A DNA stretch of 64,000 nt from Sphingomonas sanxanigenens DSM 19645 = NX02 (GTDB taxonomy: Bacteria; Pseudomonadota; Alphaproteobacteria; Sphingomonadales; Sphingomonadaceae): assembly GCF_000512205.2 (NCBI RefSeq), contig NZ_CP006644.1, positions 1,978,520-2,042,519 of the forward strand, read 5' to 3'. The translations under genes were made by a program, and so were the position numbers. The notes beneath the pieces were generated by a model, which was not told where the DNA came from, made no database searches, and saw only the letters and a list, made by a program, of their open reading frames with translations. Of this stretch, positions 51,812 to 62,133 are shown piece after piece. Each line of letters opens with the position of its first letter. Positions within the stretch are counted from its first letter, which is position 1.

Positions 51812-52155
51812 GGCACATGTCTCCTCGTGGCGCCGCGAGGCGCTCGGGTTTGGGGTTTGGATAGGCCGGGCAGGAAGGCCGGGACCTGGGTCCGTGGTGG
51901 CCGCCGATCCGGTGCGTCCCAAGGCATGACGATCAGGAATGACCGCCGCAATAGGCAGGGCACTGAACTGCCGAAGCGGTGAAACAAAGCAGCGCTAGGA
52001 CGAAAGTGACCGAATGATCTCGCAAAGCGTTGAAAGATCAGGTTTGGGCAAAAGCGGCACTATAATGCCGCTTTTGCTTCCATTCGTCGTGGAAATGCAC
52101 CCGTTCGGGTTCGCCGCCGGGTGACACGTCAGTAGTTCAGGCAGGAGAAGGAGTG
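51812..52155. promoter_or_regulatory. Divergent control region between tra operon and HTH genes
   Basis: A 344-bp non-coding region between the leftward transfer operon and the rightward regulatory genes, so it should contain the promoters for both. Its only strong structure is a perfect 12-bp inverted repeat, listed separately. The region may also contain transfer-control sites, but no oriT/nic consensus is evident. Confidence 0.55.
52048..52077. repeat. Perfect 12-bp inverted repeat with TATAAT in the loop
   Basis: The arms GCAAAAGCGGCA (52048-52059) and TGCCGCTTTTGC (52066-52077) pair perfectly around the 6-base loop CTATAA; reading across the loop gives a consensus TATAAT at 52061-52066. 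It could be an operator placed over a -10 box, controlling the tra operon or the rightward HTH gene. A simple terminator is less likely because no T-run follows the stem. Confidence 0.6.
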
Positions 52156-52605
52156 ATGGCCCGACCCAGACGCAGCTTCAAGCTCCGGCTTTCGCCGGCA
52201 GGTCTCGACGTCCTCATCGACTCGCATTGTCACCTGATTCGGGTCACGCGTTCGCTGATCGCCTGGGGCACGACCCTGCATGTGGCGGTCGAGCATCTCA
52301 GCACCTTGTCGACCGGCGAGATCATCGAGCAGATGAAGGTGCACGAACTCGACGGCCTGGGCGGCGCAGAGGAGCATCATGTCGGAGCGTCCAATCGACT
52401 CTGGGATATCGCGACAAGCATTACCGAAAGGGTCCAGGAGACGTCACCCAATGGTCGCCAGCCCAATCTGGGAACCATTTATCTCCTGGCGCTGATGCAG
52501 ATCCCCAAAGCGGGCCAATCGGACCTGATGAGCGCCTATGGTCGCGCCTTGCAATCGGGCGCACGAACGCCGGCCTACCGCGAGGTCAATGATCTTGCTG
52601 GGTAA
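52156..52605 (+). CDS. Unknown protein upstream of the regulators
   Basis: 149 residues from ATG 52156, behind AGGAGAAGGAG. A basic N-terminus (MARPRRSFKLRLSPAG) is followed by a helical body; there is no membrane segment. It is divergent from the tra operon, a place often taken by transfer regulators, but I see no known DNA-binding motif. Not recognised. Confidence 0.6.
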   Translation: MARPRRSFKLRLSPAGLDVLIDSHCHLIRVTRSLIAWGTTLHVAVEHLSTLSTGEIIEQMKVHELDGLGGAEEHHVGASNRLWDIATSITERVQETSPNGRQPNLGTIYLLALMQIPKAGQSDLMSAYGRALQSGARTPAYREVNDLAG

Positions 52606-52715: not shown

Positions 52716-53135
52716 ATGTCGCACGATTTAGCGACTTCCGTTGCTGAAAGTCCGATCCTGTACGTCAAAGTACAGTCAGGACGACAAATTGAAGAGGCAC
52801 GGAAGAAGAGGCGCTTGACGCAACGCGATCTGGCGCGCGAGCTTGGTATGGGCGTTCGCTGGCTTCGGGAGATCGAAGGCGGCAATCCCCGCGCGCGGCT
52901 CGACGATCATCTTGTCTGCGCCTACCGGCTCGGACTGTCGACGGGGCATATCCTGATACCGCTGCTGTTCGCAGGACAGAAGATGTGTTTTCCGCACCAA
53001 CTGGCGACGGGTGACCTCAGCGATCTTGAACGGATGTGCATTGAGCTCATCGCGCAGCGTAACCTCGATCATCTCACGCGCGCCTTGACGCCAGCATGGC
53101 CCTCCGCATGTGTTCCAGCCGGCGCCGGCCTATGA
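52716..53135 (+). CDS. XRE-like helix-turn-helix regulator
   Basis: 139 residues. The HTH is GRQIEEARKKRRLTQRDLARELGMGVRWLREIEGGNPRARLDDHLVCAYRLGL (about residues 28-80). The C-terminal part is short, with a few aliphatic stretches. Its stop overlaps the GntR start (ATGA), so the two regulators are made together. Confidence 0.85.
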   Translation: MSHDLATSVAESPILYVKVQSGRQIEEARKKRRLTQRDLARELGMGVRWLREIEGGNPRARLDDHLVCAYRLGLSTGHILIPLLFAGQKMCFPHQLATGDLSDLERMCIELIAQRNLDHLTRALTPAWPSACVPAGAGL

Positions 53136-53764
53136 TGTCGGCGATGGATCCGCCGCTGCATGAGCGCGTGTACGAGGGGATCAAGGAGGATTACCTCGCG
53201 GGCCATTTCGTGCCGGGCAAACGGATCGATATTCAGGACCTCGCGACCCGCCATCGGTCGAGCAAGACACCTGTTCGTGAGGCAGCGTTTATTCTGGTGG
53301 GGGAAGGACTTCTCACACACCACTCGGACGGCGGATTCCTTGTGCCGATTTTCGAACCGGCCGAGTTGATCGAACTTCTTGCCTTGCATATGCAGATGAT
53401 GGCGACGACGCTGTCGAGCCTACGGGAAAGCGCCATTCGCGGCGTCTTGCTACAGACCCCAACTCTCGGACCCCGGCCTTCGGCGGTCGCCGTCGCAAAC
53501 CAAGCAACGGGCATATTCGCGTCATTGGCGGAGGCCACCAGAAATCATCAGGCGTCGCTACTGATTAGAGGCCTTAATGAGAGACTTCACTACGCGAGAA
53601 TCGCGGAGGCGGTGGAACCGGCGATGGCGGAAAAGGAACTCGCCACCATCGTGGATACCAATGTCGCGAGCTTGTCAAAGGCAATGCGAAGACGAATTGA
53701 AGCATACCATATGCGGAAAATTGCTCACCAACAGAAAATTATCCAAAAGCAGTCTTCTTCATAA
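53132..53764 (+). CDS. GntR-family regulator
   Basis: 210 residues from ATG 53132. The N-terminal winged helix is MDPPLHERVYEGIKEDYLAGHFVPGKRIDIQDLATRHRSSKTPVREAAFILVGEGLLTHHSDGGFLVPIF, the FadR-subgroup pattern; the C-terminal domain is helical. GntR-type genes accompany lasso peptide clusters in several sphingomonads and caulobacters, so this protein may control the cluster that starts 180 bp downstream (inference). Confidence 0.87.
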   Translation: MMSAMDPPLHERVYEGIKEDYLAGHFVPGKRIDIQDLATRHRSSKTPVREAAFILVGEGLLTHHSDGGFLVPIFEPAELIELLALHMQMMATTLSSLRESAIRGVLLQTPTLGPRPSAVAVANQATGIFASLAEATRNHQASLLIRGLNERLHYARIAEAVEPAMAEKELATIVDTNVASLSKAMRRRIEAYHMRKIAHQQKIIQKQSSS

Positions 53765-53845
53765 AATAGTATATTTATCAAAGCAATGGGGCGTAAAATT
53801 GACCCCGTTGCCATCAACACGTCATTCTAAAAGGGCACCTGACGG

Positions 53846-53870
53846 ATATCGCGCCAATCTGTCGCGATAT
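53846..53870. promoter_or_regulatory. Candidate operator upstream of the lasso precursor
   Basis: A perfect 8-bp inverted repeat (ATATCGCG at 53846-53853, CGCGATAT at 53863-53870) with a 9-bp spacer, about 75 bp before the precursor gene. It is the clearest palindrome in the cluster promoter region. Binding by the adjacent GntR or XRE-like protein is inferred. A weaker inverted repeat (53784-53810) lies just after the GntR stop. Confidence 0.5.
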
Positions 53871-53946
53871 ATCCGCGCCAGCAGATATTCAACTGCTCTA
53901 CCTTTGAACTGCCGCTCACTTGGGGCGGTTGACGAGGAGCATGGAA

Positions 53947-54087
53947 ATGGAACGCAAAGACGAACACAACTCCGACGAGCTGATCGACCTCGGCTCCGTC
54001 TCCCAGGAAACCAAGGGCAACTCGGGTGGGCTGGGCGACACGGTCATCCAGCGACAGCTGACGGGAATCGGTCTCGAGGACGACTGA
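53947..54087 (+). CDS. Lasso peptide precursor
   Basis: 46 residues from ATG 53947, chosen because GAGGAG stands 7 bp before it; an ATG two codons earlier is only 1 bp from that site. The leader (23 residues) has the proteobacterial pattern DELIDLGSVSQETK with Thr at -2. The core (23 residues, from 54016) starts Gly and has Asp at position 8, giving the ring segment GNSGGLGD, and the tail ends GLEDD like other sphingomonad lasso peptides. The leader and core should be cut between Lys and Gly and the ring closed between Gly1 and Asp8. This short gene is easily missed by gene finders. Confidence 0.92.
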   Translation: MERKDEHNSDELIDLGSVSQETKGNSGGLGDTVIQRQLTGIGLEDD

Positions 54088-54095
54088 AACTCCTT

Positions 54096-54123
54096 TGGCG
54101 CGCGTCCCACCCGGCGCGCGCCA
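54096..54123. terminator. Hairpin between lasso precursor and B gene (possible attenuator)
   Basis: A 9-bp stem (TGGCGCGCG at 54096-54104, CGCGCGCCA at 54115-54123) with a 10-base loop lies just after the precursor stop. There is no T-run, so it is probably a partial terminator or a transcript-stabilising hairpin, which would raise precursor over enzyme expression. Such intergenic hairpins are common in RiPP operons; activity is inferred. Confidence 0.55.
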
Positions 54124-54143
54124 CTGTTCAGGGGGCCAGGTTG

Positions 54144-54818
54144 ATGTACTATCGACTGAGAGACGGGCTCTATCACTGCATGGCAGGCCGCCGCGTGATA
54201 TTCCTCGATCTGATCCAGGACCGATATTTTGCTTTGCCCCAGGCATGTGGAGCCGCCTTCCAGAAACTTGTCAGCCGACGCGGCGAGGGTTTCGATGGTG
54301 CCCGCGAAGAGCTTTCTCTACTGATAGGAAGAGGCAATCTGATCGAAACTCTGGCTCCGGACGGCTCACTATCCAATACTGTCATCCACTCCGTGAGAAC
54401 TGACCACCCGGCGCGCAAACTGCCGACGATCCACATACCCACTCTGGTGCTCGCGCTATATTGGGAGTTGAACATCTCGATCCAGCTGCGAAGCCGGGCG
54501 CTATCAGCGGCGATTAGACGCGCGGCGGAAATTCCTACCCGATCGCGGCTTGACTCTGCGCTGAGGGGATCCCGGATGTCCAGGATGGTGTCTGCGTTCG
54601 AATATACCGCATTCGTCTTTGGCCGGACAAACCGATGTCTGGCACGATCGTTGGCGATGTTTTCCTTATGTCGTGCGCATGGGATCCCTGTCCATTTCGT
54701 CGTCGGAGTGCGGTCAGATCCATTTGCGGCGCATGCATGGGTACAAAAAGGCGACGTCGTGCTCAACGACACCGCCGAACAGGTCAATCTTTACACGCCG
54801 ATCCTGGTCCTCGAATGA
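54144..54818 (+). CDS. Lasso peptide B protein (leader-binding + transglutaminase-like peptidase)
   Basis: 224 residues from ATG 54144. The N-terminal 80 residues form the PqqD-like RRE that binds the leader (VIFLDLIQDRYFALP...). The C-terminal half is the transglutaminase-like cysteine protease with Cys165 (RTNRCLARSL), His197 (AAHAWVQ) and Asp209 (VVLNDTAEQV), a complete triad. It removes the leader so that the core can be cyclised. Full length for proteobacterial fused B proteins. Its stop overlaps the cyclase start. Confidence 0.92.
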   Translation: MYYRLRDGLYHCMAGRRVIFLDLIQDRYFALPQACGAAFQKLVSRRGEGFDGAREELSLLIGRGNLIETLAPDGSLSNTVIHSVRTDHPARKLPTIHIPTLVLALYWELNISIQLRSRALSAAIRRAAEIPTRSRLDSALRGSRMSRMVSAFEYTAFVFGRTNRCLARSLAMFSLCRAHGIPVHFVVGVRSDPFAAHAWVQKGDVVLNDTAEQVNLYTPILVLE

Positions 54819-56017
54819 GCGTCCAGTTTATCGCGCGGATAGCCAGGCAAGGTCTGGTCTACGATGCGGACAGTGTCCCTCCTACGATATCTTCCCTTTT
54901 CAGGCAGGATATCGTGCCGGGGCTCTGCCTGGACATCAGCGATCCCCGCGCGTTGATCGCCTTGCCAGCGCAAAAGGGGTTCATCATCGGCACGCTGTTC
55001 CATCGCTATGGACCACCGGAACGTGTTGAACAACTTGAGCCGAAAGAGATCGAGGCGATCTGCAGATCAAAAGGCGAGCACCTACTCCGGAGGTATTGGG
55101 GCCGATATGTTGCCGTAATCCGATCGGAAAACGCGCTTTCCGTTATACGCGACCCTTCTGGCGCCATGCCGTGCTATCACACAAGCCATAGACGTGAACT
55201 TGTCCTAGCGTCCGCGCCGTCGCTGTTCAGCGCTGCCGGATTGCCAAGCCTATCGGTCGACACAGCGGGAGTTGCCAGAGCGCTTTTGATCGCTGGTATG
55301 CCAGAAATCACGACTGCGCTCATCGGCGTCGGTCAACTCCTTCCGGGTACTTCTCTGGAAATCGCAGGATCACGTACCACAACGGCTATCCGATGGGACC
55401 CTTGGGAGTTCGTCAGTTCCCTGGATGATCGATCGCCGGACGAGCTTGCAACAGATCTTCGGCGAACCGTTCAATCCTGCGTTTCCGGCTGGGGAAGGCT
55501 CTACAACAAAGGGCTTCTGACGGTCTCAGGAGGCCTCGACTCATCTATCGTTGCGGCATGCCTTCGCAATGTCGGACATGATCTGTCACTCTTAACGCTC
55601 ACAACGGACGATCCACTCGGTGACGAAAGAGCATTCGCACGAACCATGGCGTCATACCTGGGCAGGCCCGTGTTTGAAGAGCGCTATTCTTTGACCCACA
55701 TCGATCTCAACAAATCCTCTGTAAGCCATCTTCCTACCCCGGGCGGGCGTGTGGACGCCCAATCCTTTGACGCGACTGCGTTGAAGGTCGCCACTGACGT
55801 CGGCGCAAACGCCATTTTTACAGGCAATGGGGGCGATAACGTCTTTTACATGAGCCGGTCTGCACGGTCTCTTGCCGACCGCTACTCAGTGAATGGCCTT
55901 TCAGCAGGCCTGCTAGGAACACTGCGGGACATTCGCAGTTTGACTGGAGCAACCGCCCTGCAAGCAAGTTCGCAAGGGATTGCGGCTTGGCGCAAAGCCG
56001 CGAAGGGATATGTGTAG
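54815..56017 (+). pseudogene. Lasso peptide cyclase (asparagine-synthetase-like), truncated by IS21
   Basis: 400 codons from ATG 54815. An N-terminal glutamine-amidotransferase-like domain without the Cys2 nucleophile precedes the ATP-pyrophosphatase domain with SGGLDSS (238-244) and TGNGGDNVFYM. The frame ends 6 bases into the IS21 element, so the last native residue is about 398; full-length cyclases are roughly 500-600 residues. The missing part is the C-terminal end of the synthetase domain, so the enzyme is probably inactive. Confidence 0.88.
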
Positions 56018-56115
56018 GGCGGTGACAAACCCGGCCACGGGAGCGCCGGCATAGGTGCCGGTGCGGCGGAGAGAAATCCTGCCAGTGGTAAGCTGCTCGT
56101 TTTGGGGCGGCGGGG

Positions 56116-57603
56116 ATGTTTGCCTTGGAGAGTTACGCGGCCGTTCGGCGTTTTGTGTTCGTGGAAGGTCACAGCCGCCGGGAGGCGGCGAAGGCGTTCG
56201 GTCTGAGCCGGGACACGGTGGCGAAGATGTGCGCGTTCTCGCTGCCGCCGGGCTACCGGCGCACGAAGCCGCCGGAGAAGCCGAAGCTAGGTCCGCTGTT
56301 GCCGGTCATCGACGCTATCCTGCGCGAGGATCGCCTGTCGCCGGCCAAGCAGCAGCACACCGCCAAGCGGATCTTCGAGCGGCTGCGCGACGAGCATGGC
56401 TATGGCGGCGGCTACACGGTGGTGAAGGACTATGTCCGGCAGAGCCGCGCACGCAGCCGCGAGACGTTCGTGCCGCTGGCACACCCGCCGGGCCATGCCC
56501 AGGTCGACTTCGGCGAGGCGTGGGCAGAGATCGGCGGCATGCGGCAGAAGGTCCATTATTTCTGCATGGACCTGCCGCACTCAGATGCGTGTTTCGTGAA
56601 GGCCTATCCGCGCGAGACGACCGAGGCGTTCCTCGACGGTCATGTTTCGGCCTTCGCCTTTTTCGGCGGCGTGCCGCTGTCCATCCTCTACGACAATCTG
56701 AAGATCGCGGTGGCGAGGATCTGCGGCGACGGCAAGCGCGAGCGCACGCGGGCCTTCACCGAGCTGGTCAGCCACTATTTGTTTGCCGACCGCTTCGGTC
56801 GTCCCGGCAAGGGCAACGACAAGGGGAAGGTCGAAGCGCTGGTGAAGCACGCCCGCGCGATGTTCATGGTGCCCATTCCGGTAGCGCGCAGCTTCGACGA
56901 GTTGAACGAGCGCCTGGCGAAGGATTGCCTGGCTCGACAGAACGGGCATGCCGGGCGCCATGCCGACACCATCGCCGAGCGCCTCGTCGCCGACCGGCAG
57001 GCCTTCCGGGCCTTGCCGGCGGTGCCGTTGGAGCCGTGCGAGAAGCGGTCGGCGCGCGTATCGTCGACCGCGCTGGTGCGCTATCGGACCAACGACTATT
57101 CGGTGCCAACCGTCTATGGCTTCCGCGACGTCCTGGTGAAGGGGTTCGTCGACGAGGTGGTCATCAGCATCGCCGGCGAGGAGATCGCCCGGCATCCGCG
57201 CAGCTATGGCGAGGGCGCATTCGTCGCCAACCCGCTGCATTATCTCGCGCTCATCGAGCAGAAGCCCGGCGCGCTCGACCAGGCGGCCGCCTTGCAGGGC
57301 TGGGATCTGCCCGAGATCTTCCAGCATCTGCGCCACCTTCTGGAAGCTCGTATGGGCACCAAGGGGAAGCGCGAGTTCATCCAGGTGCTGCGGCTGCTCG
57401 AAGCCCTGCCGCTCGCCGTCGTCACCGACGCGGTGACGCAGGCCGTGCAGCTCGGCGCCATCGGCTTCGACGCGGTGAAGCTCATCGCGCTGGCGCGTAT
57501 CGAACGGCGACCGCCCCGTCTCGATCTGGCCGCCTATCCGCACCTGCCCCGGACGGACGTGAAGACGACACGGGCGGCGGACTATGGGGTGCTGGCGGCA
57601 TGA
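56116..57603 (+). CDS. istA: IstA transposase of IS21 family
   Basis: 495 residues. The N-terminal HTH (FVFVEGHSRREAAKAFGLSRDTVAKM) is followed by the integrase core with HAQVDFGEAW (Asp), LSILYDNLKIAV (Asp) and GNDKGKVEALVKHAR (Glu), then a C-terminal beta-barrel region (STALVRYRTNDYSVPTVYGFRDV). It carries out strand transfer with IstB. Its stop overlaps the istB start (ATGA). Confidence 0.94.
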   Translation: MFALESYAAVRRFVFVEGHSRREAAKAFGLSRDTVAKMCAFSLPPGYRRTKPPEKPKLGPLLPVIDAILREDRLSPAKQQHTAKRIFERLRDEHGYGGGYTVVKDYVRQSRARSRETFVPLAHPPGHAQVDFGEAWAEIGGMRQKVHYFCMDLPHSDACFVKAYPRETTEAFLDGHVSAFAFFGGVPLSILYDNLKIAVARICGDGKRERTRAFTELVSHYLFADRFGRPGKGNDKGKVEALVKHARAMFMVPIPVARSFDELNERLAKDCLARQNGHAGRHADTIAERLVADRQAFRALPAVPLEPCEKRSARVSSTALVRYRTNDYSVPTVYGFRDVLVKGFVDEVVISIAGEEIARHPRSYGEGAFVANPLHYLALIEQKPGALDQAAALQGWDLPEIFQHLRHLLEARMGTKGKREFIQVLRLLEALPLAVVTDAVTQAVQLGAIGFDAVKLIALARIERRPPRLDLAAYPHLPRTDVKTTRAADYGVLAA

Positions 57604-58451
57604 CCGGCGACAAGATGCCGACCGGCACGACCGGCGGGACACCCCAGGTGCTGCTCGCCCACCACCTCAAGCAGCTCAAGCTGCCGACCGTGCTGCGCGA
57701 ATATGAGAAGGTCGCGCGCGAATGCGCTCGCGACGGTGTCGACCACCCACGCTACCTGCTGCGCCTCATCGAGCTTGAGCTCATCGACAGGGAGCGGCGC
57801 ACGGTCGAGCGGCGGATCCGCGCCGCCCGCTTCCCGGCGGTGAAGAGTCTCGACACCTTCGACTTCACAGCCATCCCCAGCCTCAACAAGATGCTGGTGC
57901 TCGAGCTCGCTCGCTCGGAGTATATCCTTCGGCGGGAGAACGTCATTGCGCTGGGCAACAGCGGCACGGGCAAGACGCACGTCGCTCTCGCGCTCGGCCT
58001 GGCTGCTTGCCAGAAGGGATTCACCGTCGCCTTCGCGACCGCCGCTTCGCTGGTCAACCAGCTGATGGAGGCGCGCGACGAGCGGCGCCTGCTCAAGCTC
58101 CAGCGGGAACTGGCGGCCGTGAAGCTGCTCATCGTCGACGAGCTCGGCTATGTGCCGCTGTCGGCGACTGGCGCCGAACTTCTCTTCGAGGTGCTGTCGC
58201 AGCGCTACGAGCGCGGCTCGACCATCATCACGTCGAACTTGCCGTTCGAGGACTGGACCCAGGTCCTCGCCTCAGAACGGCTTACCGGCGCGCTGCTCGA
58301 CCGGCTCACCCACCACGTCTCCATCCTCACCATGAACGGCGACAGCTACCGCCTCAAACAGTCCGCCGGCCGGCGATCAGCCAGAAGGGCGGAGCAAAAC
58401 CAGGCCACCGTGTCGGCCGACCCGAACACCGGCGAGATCCCGTCGCCATAG
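57600..58451 (+). CDS. istB: IstB transposition helper ATPase
   Basis: 283 residues from ATG 57600. AAA+ ATPase with Walker A NVIALGNSGTGKTHVAL and Walker B VKLLIVDELGYVPLS, and sensor region STIITSNLPFEDW. It assembles on target DNA and directs IstA. The frame stays open far upstream through istA, but that is a shadow of the istA gene. Confidence 0.94.
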   Translation: MTGDKMPTGTTGGTPQVLLAHHLKQLKLPTVLREYEKVARECARDGVDHPRYLLRLIELELIDRERRTVERRIRAARFPAVKSLDTFDFTAIPSLNKMLVLELARSEYILRRENVIALGNSGTGKTHVALALGLAACQKGFTVAFATAASLVNQLMEARDERRLLKLQRELAAVKLLIVDELGYVPLSATGAELLFEVLSQRYERGSTIITSNLPFEDWTQVLASERLTGALLDRLTHHVSILTMNGDSYRLKQSAGRRSARRAEQNQATVSADPNTGEIPSP

Positions 58452-58469
58452 CCGGGAGAAAACGGTCGC

Positions 58470-58513
58470 GACGATATGGAAAGGGCCCCGATCGGGGCCC
58501 TTTCCATATCGTC
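58470..58513. terminator. 44-bp perfect palindrome after istB
   Basis: Two uninterrupted 22-bp arms, starting GACGATATGGAAAGG on the left, meet with no spacer between 58491 and 58492. It follows the istB stop by 18 bp inside the IS. Such a structure would act as a strong hairpin terminator in either direction, insulating neighbouring genes, and may also matter for IS DNA structure. Confidence 0.7.
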
Positions 58514-58580
58514 ATCACGCCTCGACCGCTGGCCTGCTTTTACTCCGCCCCGCTGGCCGGGTTTTGCTCCGCCGTTGACA

Positions 58581-58955
58581 ACCGCGCTCTCGCATCTGAA
58601 GGGACTCGAACATCGGATCGCGTCGACAGATAGCCAGGCTTATGGCCAGACAGCGAGGCATGATGCACTCGCCCGCGGCATCGCGAAGACAGATCGCCTG
58701 GTCGCGCGGCACATGCAGGCTTGGACTACACGCCAATTTGCCCGGCTTCATGCGCCTGACGGCGCGCGCCAATCCGAACTCCCTCTGCTCCGCGTTGACC
58801 CGTGCCCCATCGACCCCTGGGAGCGCGCGATCGCATAGGCTCGCGCCGAAATCCGCAGCCTCGTGGAGGATGGCGATATCGGCCACGAAGACGTGACCGC
58901 GCTGTGGATCGAGCAGTGGGCGGCCGACATCTATCGCGACGCTCTCGCCGCCTGA
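58581..58955 (+). pseudogene. Broken unknown gene after IS21 (5' end lost, internal amber)
   Basis: The frame directly to the right of the IS (codons from 58581: TALSHLKGLEHRIAS...) runs to an amber at 58836-58838, then continues in the same frame (ARAEIRSLVEDGDIGHEDVTALWIEQWAADIYRDALAA) to a TGA at 58953-58955. The post-amber part looks like a normal coding tail, so the gene seems to have lost its 5' end and acquired a nonsense mutation. Family unknown. Confidence 0.6.
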
Positions 58956-61230: not shown

Positions 61231-61260
61231 CAACTGCAATCCCAGCCGGAGTTGCCGCTC

Positions 61261-62133
61261 ATGATCACCACCAGAAGCCAGCGCTGGCGCGACCGGCGCT
61301 GCCGCTGGGTGCCTGGCGCCAGCGAAATCGATCCCCGCCGCTTTTCCGTCGACGTGATCGATACCGTCAAGCAGGCCGCCCCCTTCGTGCGCCAGCATCA
61401 CTATGCGGCCTCAATACCGGTCACGCGTCTTTCGGTCGGCCTCTTCCGCAACGGCGCGGGTGGCCGGTCCGAACTGGCCGGGGTCTGCGTCTTCGCGCAC
61501 CCCGTCAACAATGCGAGCGTGCCCAAATCGGCCGGGCTTGCCGACCCGCGCAGTGCCTGCGACCTGGGGCGTCTGGTGCTGCTCGACGACACCGGCGGAA
61601 ATGCCGAGACCTGGATGCTCTCACGCGCCTTTAGGCTGTTGCGCCGCGAGAAGCCCGAGATCGTCTCGGTCATCTCATATGCCGATCCGATCCGCCGGAC
61701 CGATGAGCGGGGCCAGGTCTTCATGCCGGGCCATGTCGGCACGCTCTATGCGGTGATGGGCAGCCGCTATACTGGCCGCTCCTCGCCGCGCACCGATCTC
61801 ATCATGCCGGGCGGCCAGCCGATCTCGAGCCGCGCGATCTCGAAAATCCGCAATGACGAATGCGGCCAGCGTTATGCCGCCGATCAGCTTGTCACCGCAG
61901 GCGCGCGTGCCCGTCGCATCGGTGAGGACGGCGCAAGCTGGCTCGCGGATCTCGAACGCATCGGCTTCCTGAGGCGTCAACGCCATCCCGGCAACCACGT
62001 CTATCTGTTCCCACTGACGAGGGCCGCCCGCATCGCCGCGCGCGGCGTGCCAAGCCTTCCCTATCCCATGCTCGATCGCTCCGCGCCCGCCGTCGACGTG
62101 ACGGCGCTGCCGCTGCTCGCCCGGGCCGCCTGA
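61261..62133 (+). CDS. Mom-like GNAT-fold protein (putative DNA modification)
   Basis: 290 residues. The order of motifs resembles phage Mu Mom and relatives: VKQAAPFVRQHHYAAS, GVCVFAHPVNNAS, CDLGRLVLLDDTGGNAETWMLSRAFRLLR, IVSVISYADP and GHVGTLYAVMGSRYTGRSSPRT. Mom proteins modify adenine in DNA and protect mobile DNA from restriction. A C-terminal extension (about 195-290) looks like a winged helix (DGASWLADLERIGFLRRQRHPGNHVYLF). The family call rests on motif pattern only. Confidence 0.6.
   Translation: MITTRSQRWRDRRCRWVPGASEIDPRRFSVDVIDTVKQAAPFVRQHHYAASIPVTRLSVGLFRNGAGGRSELAGVCVFAHPVNNASVPKSAGLADPRSACDLGRLVLLDDTGGNAETWMLSRAFRLLRREKPEIVSVISYADPIRRTDERGQVFMPGHVGTLYAVMGSRYTGRSSPRTDLIMPGGQPISSRAISKIRNDECGQRYAADQLVTAGARARRIGEDGASWLADLERIGFLRRQRHPGNHVYLFPLTRAARIAARGVPSLPYPMLDRSAPAVDVTALPLLARAA

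What the first reader, a model, noticed from the sequence alone, without database searches (positions are those of the whole stretch)
53132..56017. Uncatalogued lasso peptide with a broken biosynthetic cluster
The sequence shows a 46-residue precursor with a Gly1/Asp8 ring segment (GNSGGLGD), a tail ending GLEDD, an intact fused B protein with a full Cys-His-Asp triad, and a cyclase cut off by IS21. From established knowledge, such clusters also carry an isopeptidase, a TonB-type receptor or an exporter; none is present. The core does not match any lasso peptide I can recall, so it may be a new member whose host has lost production.
Basis: partly seen in the sequence, partly recalled or inferred. 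Interest (0 to 1): 0.85.

Follow-up and report, generated by a model that had tools for sequence, protein, structure and literature searches.

The report
Broken lasso-peptide cluster on conjugative island
This is an ordinary sphingomonad lasso-peptide gene cluster, carried among conjugation genes, that an IS21 insertion and a roughly 20-kb deletion have disabled; intact sister clusters exist in relatives, and the same genome keeps a second, apparently complete lasso cluster.

Summary
Window 53947-54087 encodes a 46-aa lasso precursor (23-aa leader, 23-aa core GNSGGLGDTVIQRQLTGIGLEDD) that scores far above the Pfam 'Subterisin' and NCBIfam 'benenodin family lasso peptide' cut-offs. An intact B protein and a truncated cyclase (about 400 of about 590 aa) follow. 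The cyclase ends exactly at an IS21 element (56011-58580) that has seven identical copies in the genome. The 'missing' genes were deleted, not never there: four relatives carry the isopeptidase, TonB receptor, FecR and sigma factor next to the cyclase. Against the best-matching relative (G349), about 20.5 kb is replaced by the IS plus 319 bp. The IS has no target-site duplication, as expected of an IS-associated deletion. This peptide almost certainly cannot be made, but the genome has a second, apparently complete isopeptidase-type cluster at about 4.12 Mb with another core. The precursor belongs to a catalogued family, found in 66 of 398 Sphingomonadaceae genomes, and a relative's core differs by one residue. 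New member of a known kind, degraded. One mild extra: lasso genes and the C-terminal part of GntR are far more divergent than the backbone beside them.

The parts
52153..52605 (+). 150-aa protein of unknown function, conserved with the element upstream of the cluster
   Evidence: 88-89% aa identity to L023/L024, 68% to G349; no Pfam or NCBIfam match
52716..53135 (+). Xre/HTH_31 regulator next to the cluster
   Evidence: HTH_31; homologues of 86-93% identity in G226, G393 and G349 each lie beside a lasso precursor, as do those of L023/L024
53135..53764 (+). GntR-type regulator preceding the precursor gene
   Evidence: PF00392 42 bits; residues 1-70 are 90-96% identical to three relatives, residues 71 to end 42-59%
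53947..54087 (+). lasso precursor A: leader 53947-54015, core 54016-54084
   Evidence: PF24178 57.4 bits, NF033522 48.4 bits; alignment with relatives
54144..54818 (+). B protein, conserved N-terminal region plus leader protease, intact
   Evidence: NF033537 / PF13471; Cys165, His197, Asp209 invariant; 41 of 44 residues invariant among four relatives retained
54815..56010 (+). lasso cyclase C, truncated pseudogene, about 400 of 582-589 aa
   Evidence: 47 residues invariant among four intact cyclases lie in the lost end
56011..58580 (+). IS21-family element (istA 56116-57603, istB 57600-58451), no target-site duplication here
   Evidence: NF033546 281 bits; six further full-length 100% copies in the genome; flanks compared
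58581..58899 (.). right-flank DNA with no significant match in the G349 stretch; the element backbone resumes at 58900
   Evidence: parts have weak matches elsewhere in relatives' genomes

Best explanation
It is the left half of an isopeptidase-type (benenodin/subterisin-family) lasso-peptide cluster carried among the conjugation genes of a chromosomal element in a sphingomonad. In the intact form, GntR controls the precursor, B binds and cuts the leader before Gly1, and the ATP-dependent cyclase C joins Gly1 to Asp8. The convergently encoded isopeptidase, TonB receptor, FecR and sigma factor would take up, sense and linearise the peptide (family knowledge, not shown here). In this genome an IS21 copy, with an adjacent deletion or recombination with another copy, removed the cyclase's last ~190 residues and the whole isopeptidase-receptor-sigma arm, so at most a linear core could be made from this locus. 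The loss looks recent, because the remaining frames are open and nearly all conserved residues are kept.
For: Family matches. Intact clusters with the same order plus the missing genes in L023, L024 and G349, and the same arm after C in L025 (no upstream part held). DNA collinear with G349 from window 28599 to 53406 and again from 58900, with about 20.5 kb of G349 absent from the window. The break in C coincides to the base with the IS end; seven identical IS copies and no target-site duplication. Missing cyclase end and isopeptidase have no close copy elsewhere in the genome. Recent loss: 83 of 87 residues invariant in four intact cyclases are retained, and C dN 0.29 against dS 1.53 versus G349. 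The architecture equals that described for isopeptidase clusters: GntR before the precursor, TonB transporter and sigma/anti-sigma after the isopeptidase (PMC9266682).
Against: The exact deletion event cannot be seen. The 319 bp right of the IS match nothing in the G349 stretch, and the corresponding interval differs among relatives (about 20.5 kb in G349, 21.6 kb in L023, about 39 kb in L024), so the deleted length is an estimate. An assembly error at the repeated IS was not tested against reads. Recent loss is inferred from one pairwise comparison and a residue count.
Confidence: 0.92

Rival explanations
1. The second cluster's cyclase (37% identical) acts on the product of this A and B, so the peptide is still made.
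For: An intact 585-aa cyclase with a full Asn_synthase match is present in the same genome; the two precursors share LG, ET and G motifs and Asp8.
Against: B and C of the two clusters are only 31-37% identical and leaders and cores differ; the isopeptidases of this class act only on cognate peptides (PMC9266682). Not tested for cyclases here.
Confidence: 0.05
2. The cluster never had the downstream arm: a minimal A-B-C cluster simply hit by the IS.
For: The arm is absent from this element.
Against: G349, L023, L024 and L025 all carry the arm right after C, and G349, L023 and L024 match the window's DNA upstream; the IS lacks a target-site duplication, which a simple insertion should leave; the window's backbone resumes about 20 kb further on in G349.
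Confidence: 0.04
3. The truncated cyclase, or B and A alone, keep a function, for example a linear peptide signal.
For: Frames remain open; dN/dS about 0.19 for C codons 1-398 versus G349.
Against: That ratio mostly reflects history before the truncation; 47 invariant residues are lost, including the RR-KG-P-GF stretch.
Confidence: 0.04

Closest known systems
Benenodin / subterisin family of isopeptidase-type lasso peptides (NF033522, PF24178)
   Same: Precursor above both curated cut-offs; GntR-A-B-C with convergent isopeptidase, TonB receptor, FecR and sigma factor in the intact relatives.
   Different: Here the cyclase is truncated and the isopeptidase arm is deleted; the core is 23 residues ending GIGLEDD.
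Sphingocin (SpgA) of Sphingomonas BPH (PMC11006600)
   Same: Nearly the same leader (DELIDLGSV..ETKG) and 47% identity over the precursor; operon A-B-C with isopeptidase and TonB receptor, no ABC exporter.
   Different: Different core (GPGFINNDGVGGKLPFAGLSDD); intact there.
Lasso clusters of G349, Novosphingobium sp. SG919 (L023), Sphingobium arseniciresistens (L024), G393 and G226
   Same: Same Xre next to a lasso precursor of the same type; conjugation backbone shown for G349, L023 and L024; cores GNSGGLGDTVIQRQLMGIGLEDD, GGANSGDD(T/S)FLQRQP(N/T)GIGLEDD, GAAQGDGDTFNSLRQGGLGLEDD.
   Different: G349, L023 and L024 are intact; G393 and G226 were not read beyond the precursor region.

Membership tests
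Benenodin/subterisin-family lasso precursor | Precursor scores above the curated cut-off | tested here: met
   57.4 bits vs 27 (PF24178); 48.4 vs 33 (NF033522)
Lasso peptide cluster (any class) | Gly1 and an Asp/Glu at core position 7-9, Thr at -2 of the leader | tested here: met
   Gly1, Asp8, Thr at -2; the Asp column is invariant in all 7 precursors aligned
Lasso peptide cluster (any class) | B protein with Cys-His-Asp protease triad | tested here: met
   Cys165, His197, Asp209 invariant
Lasso peptide cluster (any class) | Full-length Asn-synthetase-like cyclase | tested here: not met
   Profile 24-133 of 354 in the window, against 24-353 in G349
Isopeptidase-type lasso cluster | GntR-like regulator preceding the precursor gene | tested here: met
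   PF00392, 53135-53764
Isopeptidase-type lasso cluster | Isopeptidase, TonB receptor and sigma/anti-sigma pair downstream | tested here: not met
   Absent in the window but present in L023, L024 and G349 at the corresponding place
Lasso peptide | Threaded, dehydrated product | not testable with these tools
   Needs mass spectrometry; expected 2296.13 Da for this core, 2326.12 Da for the G349 core
Integrative and conjugative element | Conjugation apparatus on the chromosomal contig | tested here: met
   TraG_N, TraC, TrbI-like, TraK, TraU, DsbC-type proteins, on the 6.2-Mb contig C1
Integrative and conjugative element | Integrase and attachment ends | not tested
   Ends of the element were not mapped

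The most novel reading that the evidence does not exclude
Conjugative elements of sphingomonads carry a swappable lasso 'specificity cassette' (GntR sensing domain, precursor, B, C, isopeptidase, receptor) behind a constant regulator region, giving each element its own private peptide-signalling or uptake system with a GntR that senses its cognate peptide or its linearised form. The window would be an element that has lost that system.
Probability: 0.15. Interest if true: 0.55.

Novelty: new member of a known kind. Interest (0 to 1): 0.25.

Why it matters
The broken cluster itself mainly documents how IS elements disable lasso pathways. Its intact relatives show isopeptidase-type lasso clusters sitting among conjugation genes, with peptide genes far more diverged than the backbone. 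That gives a way to ask what these non-antibiotic lasso peptides are for (their function is described as enigmatic in PMC9266682), and whether the GntR recognises the cognate peptide.

Tried and rejected
Looked for the lost cyclase end and isopeptidase elsewhere in the genome: only the paralogous second cluster and one remote S9 peptidase. Looked for a second IS copy carrying the partner flank of the window's junction: none of the other six has it. Searched plasmids for the cluster by DNA: no match. A first BLAST of relatives failed because of an empty file and was repeated. Literature searches for lasso clusters on integrative elements returned no paper whose title or abstract describes this association. 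MIBiG, antiSMASH and RODEO are not available here, so 'core not described' is not proven.

Full report
What is there. Window 53947-54087 encodes a 46-aa precursor, MERKDEHNSDELIDLGSVSQETK-GNSGGLGDTVIQRQLTGIGLEDD. It matches Pfam PF24178 (Subterisin) with 57.4 bits (cut-off 27) and NCBIfam NF033522 (benenodin family lasso peptide) with 48.4 bits (cut-off 33). Thr at -2, Gly1 and Asp8 are as the family requires, and the Asp column is invariant in an alignment of seven precursors. The B protein at 54144-54818 is full length with Cys165, His197 and Asp209 conserved. The cyclase starts at 54815 and matches only positions 24-133 of the 354-position Asn_synthase profile; the G349 relative matches 24-353.

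How it was broken. The cyclase frame ends where an IS21 element begins. Other copies in the genome match this one from base 3 to 2572 of the query 56009-58581, which places the element at 56011-58580; there are seven identical copies. Its flanks here, GAAGGGATA and ACCGCGCTC, show no target-site duplication, whereas the copy in L031 has a clear CCCTAT duplication. In relative G349 the element is collinear with the window up to the break (window 28599-53406 at 82%, 54584-56010 at 67%) and again from window 58900, but about 20.5 kb of G349 between the two points has no counterpart. That stretch holds the rest of C, an S9 peptidase of the isopeptidase kind, a TonB-dependent receptor, FecR and an ECF-type sigma factor, then a ParB-like gene and others. 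L023 and L024 have the same arrangement; L025 starts inside C and has the arm. So the simplest account is an IS-associated deletion or recombination between two copies, not plain insertion. Neither the cyclase end nor the isopeptidase survives elsewhere as a close copy. Of 87 residues invariant in four intact cyclases within the retained part, the window keeps 83; 47 invariant residues lie in the lost part. This points to a recent loss (inference).

The genome still has a lasso pathway. A second cluster lies at C1 about 4.12 Mb: precursor MERNDDVIELGTASVETMGPGGQPADEFLGQDQTGLTDD, B, a full 585-aa cyclase, a 713-aa isopeptidase, a TonB receptor, a FecR-like frame and GntR. Its cyclase is 37% identical to the broken one. 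Whether it could act on the broken cluster's core is untested; I think it unlikely.

How common. PF24178 precursors occur in 66 of 398 sampled genomes of the family (28 of 96 genera) and in none of 14 control genomes. The nearest core is in G349 and differs at one residue. Sphingocin of Sphingomonas BPH has a very similar leader and the same kind of operon (PMC11006600). The constant architecture of isopeptidase clusters is described in PMC9266682. Hence a new, degraded member of a known kind.

A side pattern. The upstream neighbours are conjugation genes (TraG_N, TraC, TrbI-like, TraK, TraU, DsbC-type) on the 6.2-Mb contig. Backbone genes differ little among the four elements (TraB-like 88-92% aa, dS 0.5-0.9). 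The lasso genes differ much more (B 46-58% aa, C 62% against G349, isopeptidase 53-58%; dS high or saturated). The switch falls inside GntR: residues 1-70 are 87-96% identical across all pairs, the rest 42-59%. Homologues of the neighbouring Xre protein at 86-93% identity in G349, G393 and G226 also sit beside a lasso precursor. This could reflect cassette exchange, or just faster evolution of cargo; HTH domains are generally better conserved than effector domains, the elevated synonymous divergence is partly saturated, and only a few elements were compared, so I hold it as a lead.

Mechanism, shown and inferred. Shown: gene content, truncation, IS copies, absence of the arm, intact relatives, second cluster. 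From family knowledge: leader cleavage by B, Gly1-Asp8 isopeptide bond by C, linearisation by the isopeptidase. Inferred: this locus makes no lasso peptide; the loss is recent; the deletion was IS-associated.

Noticed in passing
G000:C1:4079176-4081745 (+) and C1:4251107-4253676 (-); loci L030, L029: Two IS21 copies in opposite orientation have swapped flanking repeats (CTCAAGCT and CCTGCC), the mark of an inversion of about 170 kb between them; the second lasso cluster lies inside the inverted segment.
   Followed up: partly
window 53135-53764 and L023, L024, L089: GntR regulator with a near-constant DNA-binding part (87-96% identity) and a strongly divergent remainder (42-59%), the change coinciding with the start of the divergent lasso genes.
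   Followed up: partly
window 61252-62133: Protein matching the Pfam Mom family (77 bits; phage Mu Mom-like DNA modification) on the element, right of the deletion.
   Followed up: no
window 58581-58899: Short stretch right of the IS with no match in the G349 region, with weak matches elsewhere in relatives' genomes; its origin is unexplained.
   Followed up: partly
L024 contig (G150:C40), between the lasso arm and the DUF932-like gene: The interval between cyclase and DUF932-like gene is about 39 kb here against about 21 kb in G349 and L023, so this part of the element holds variable cargo.
   Followed up: no
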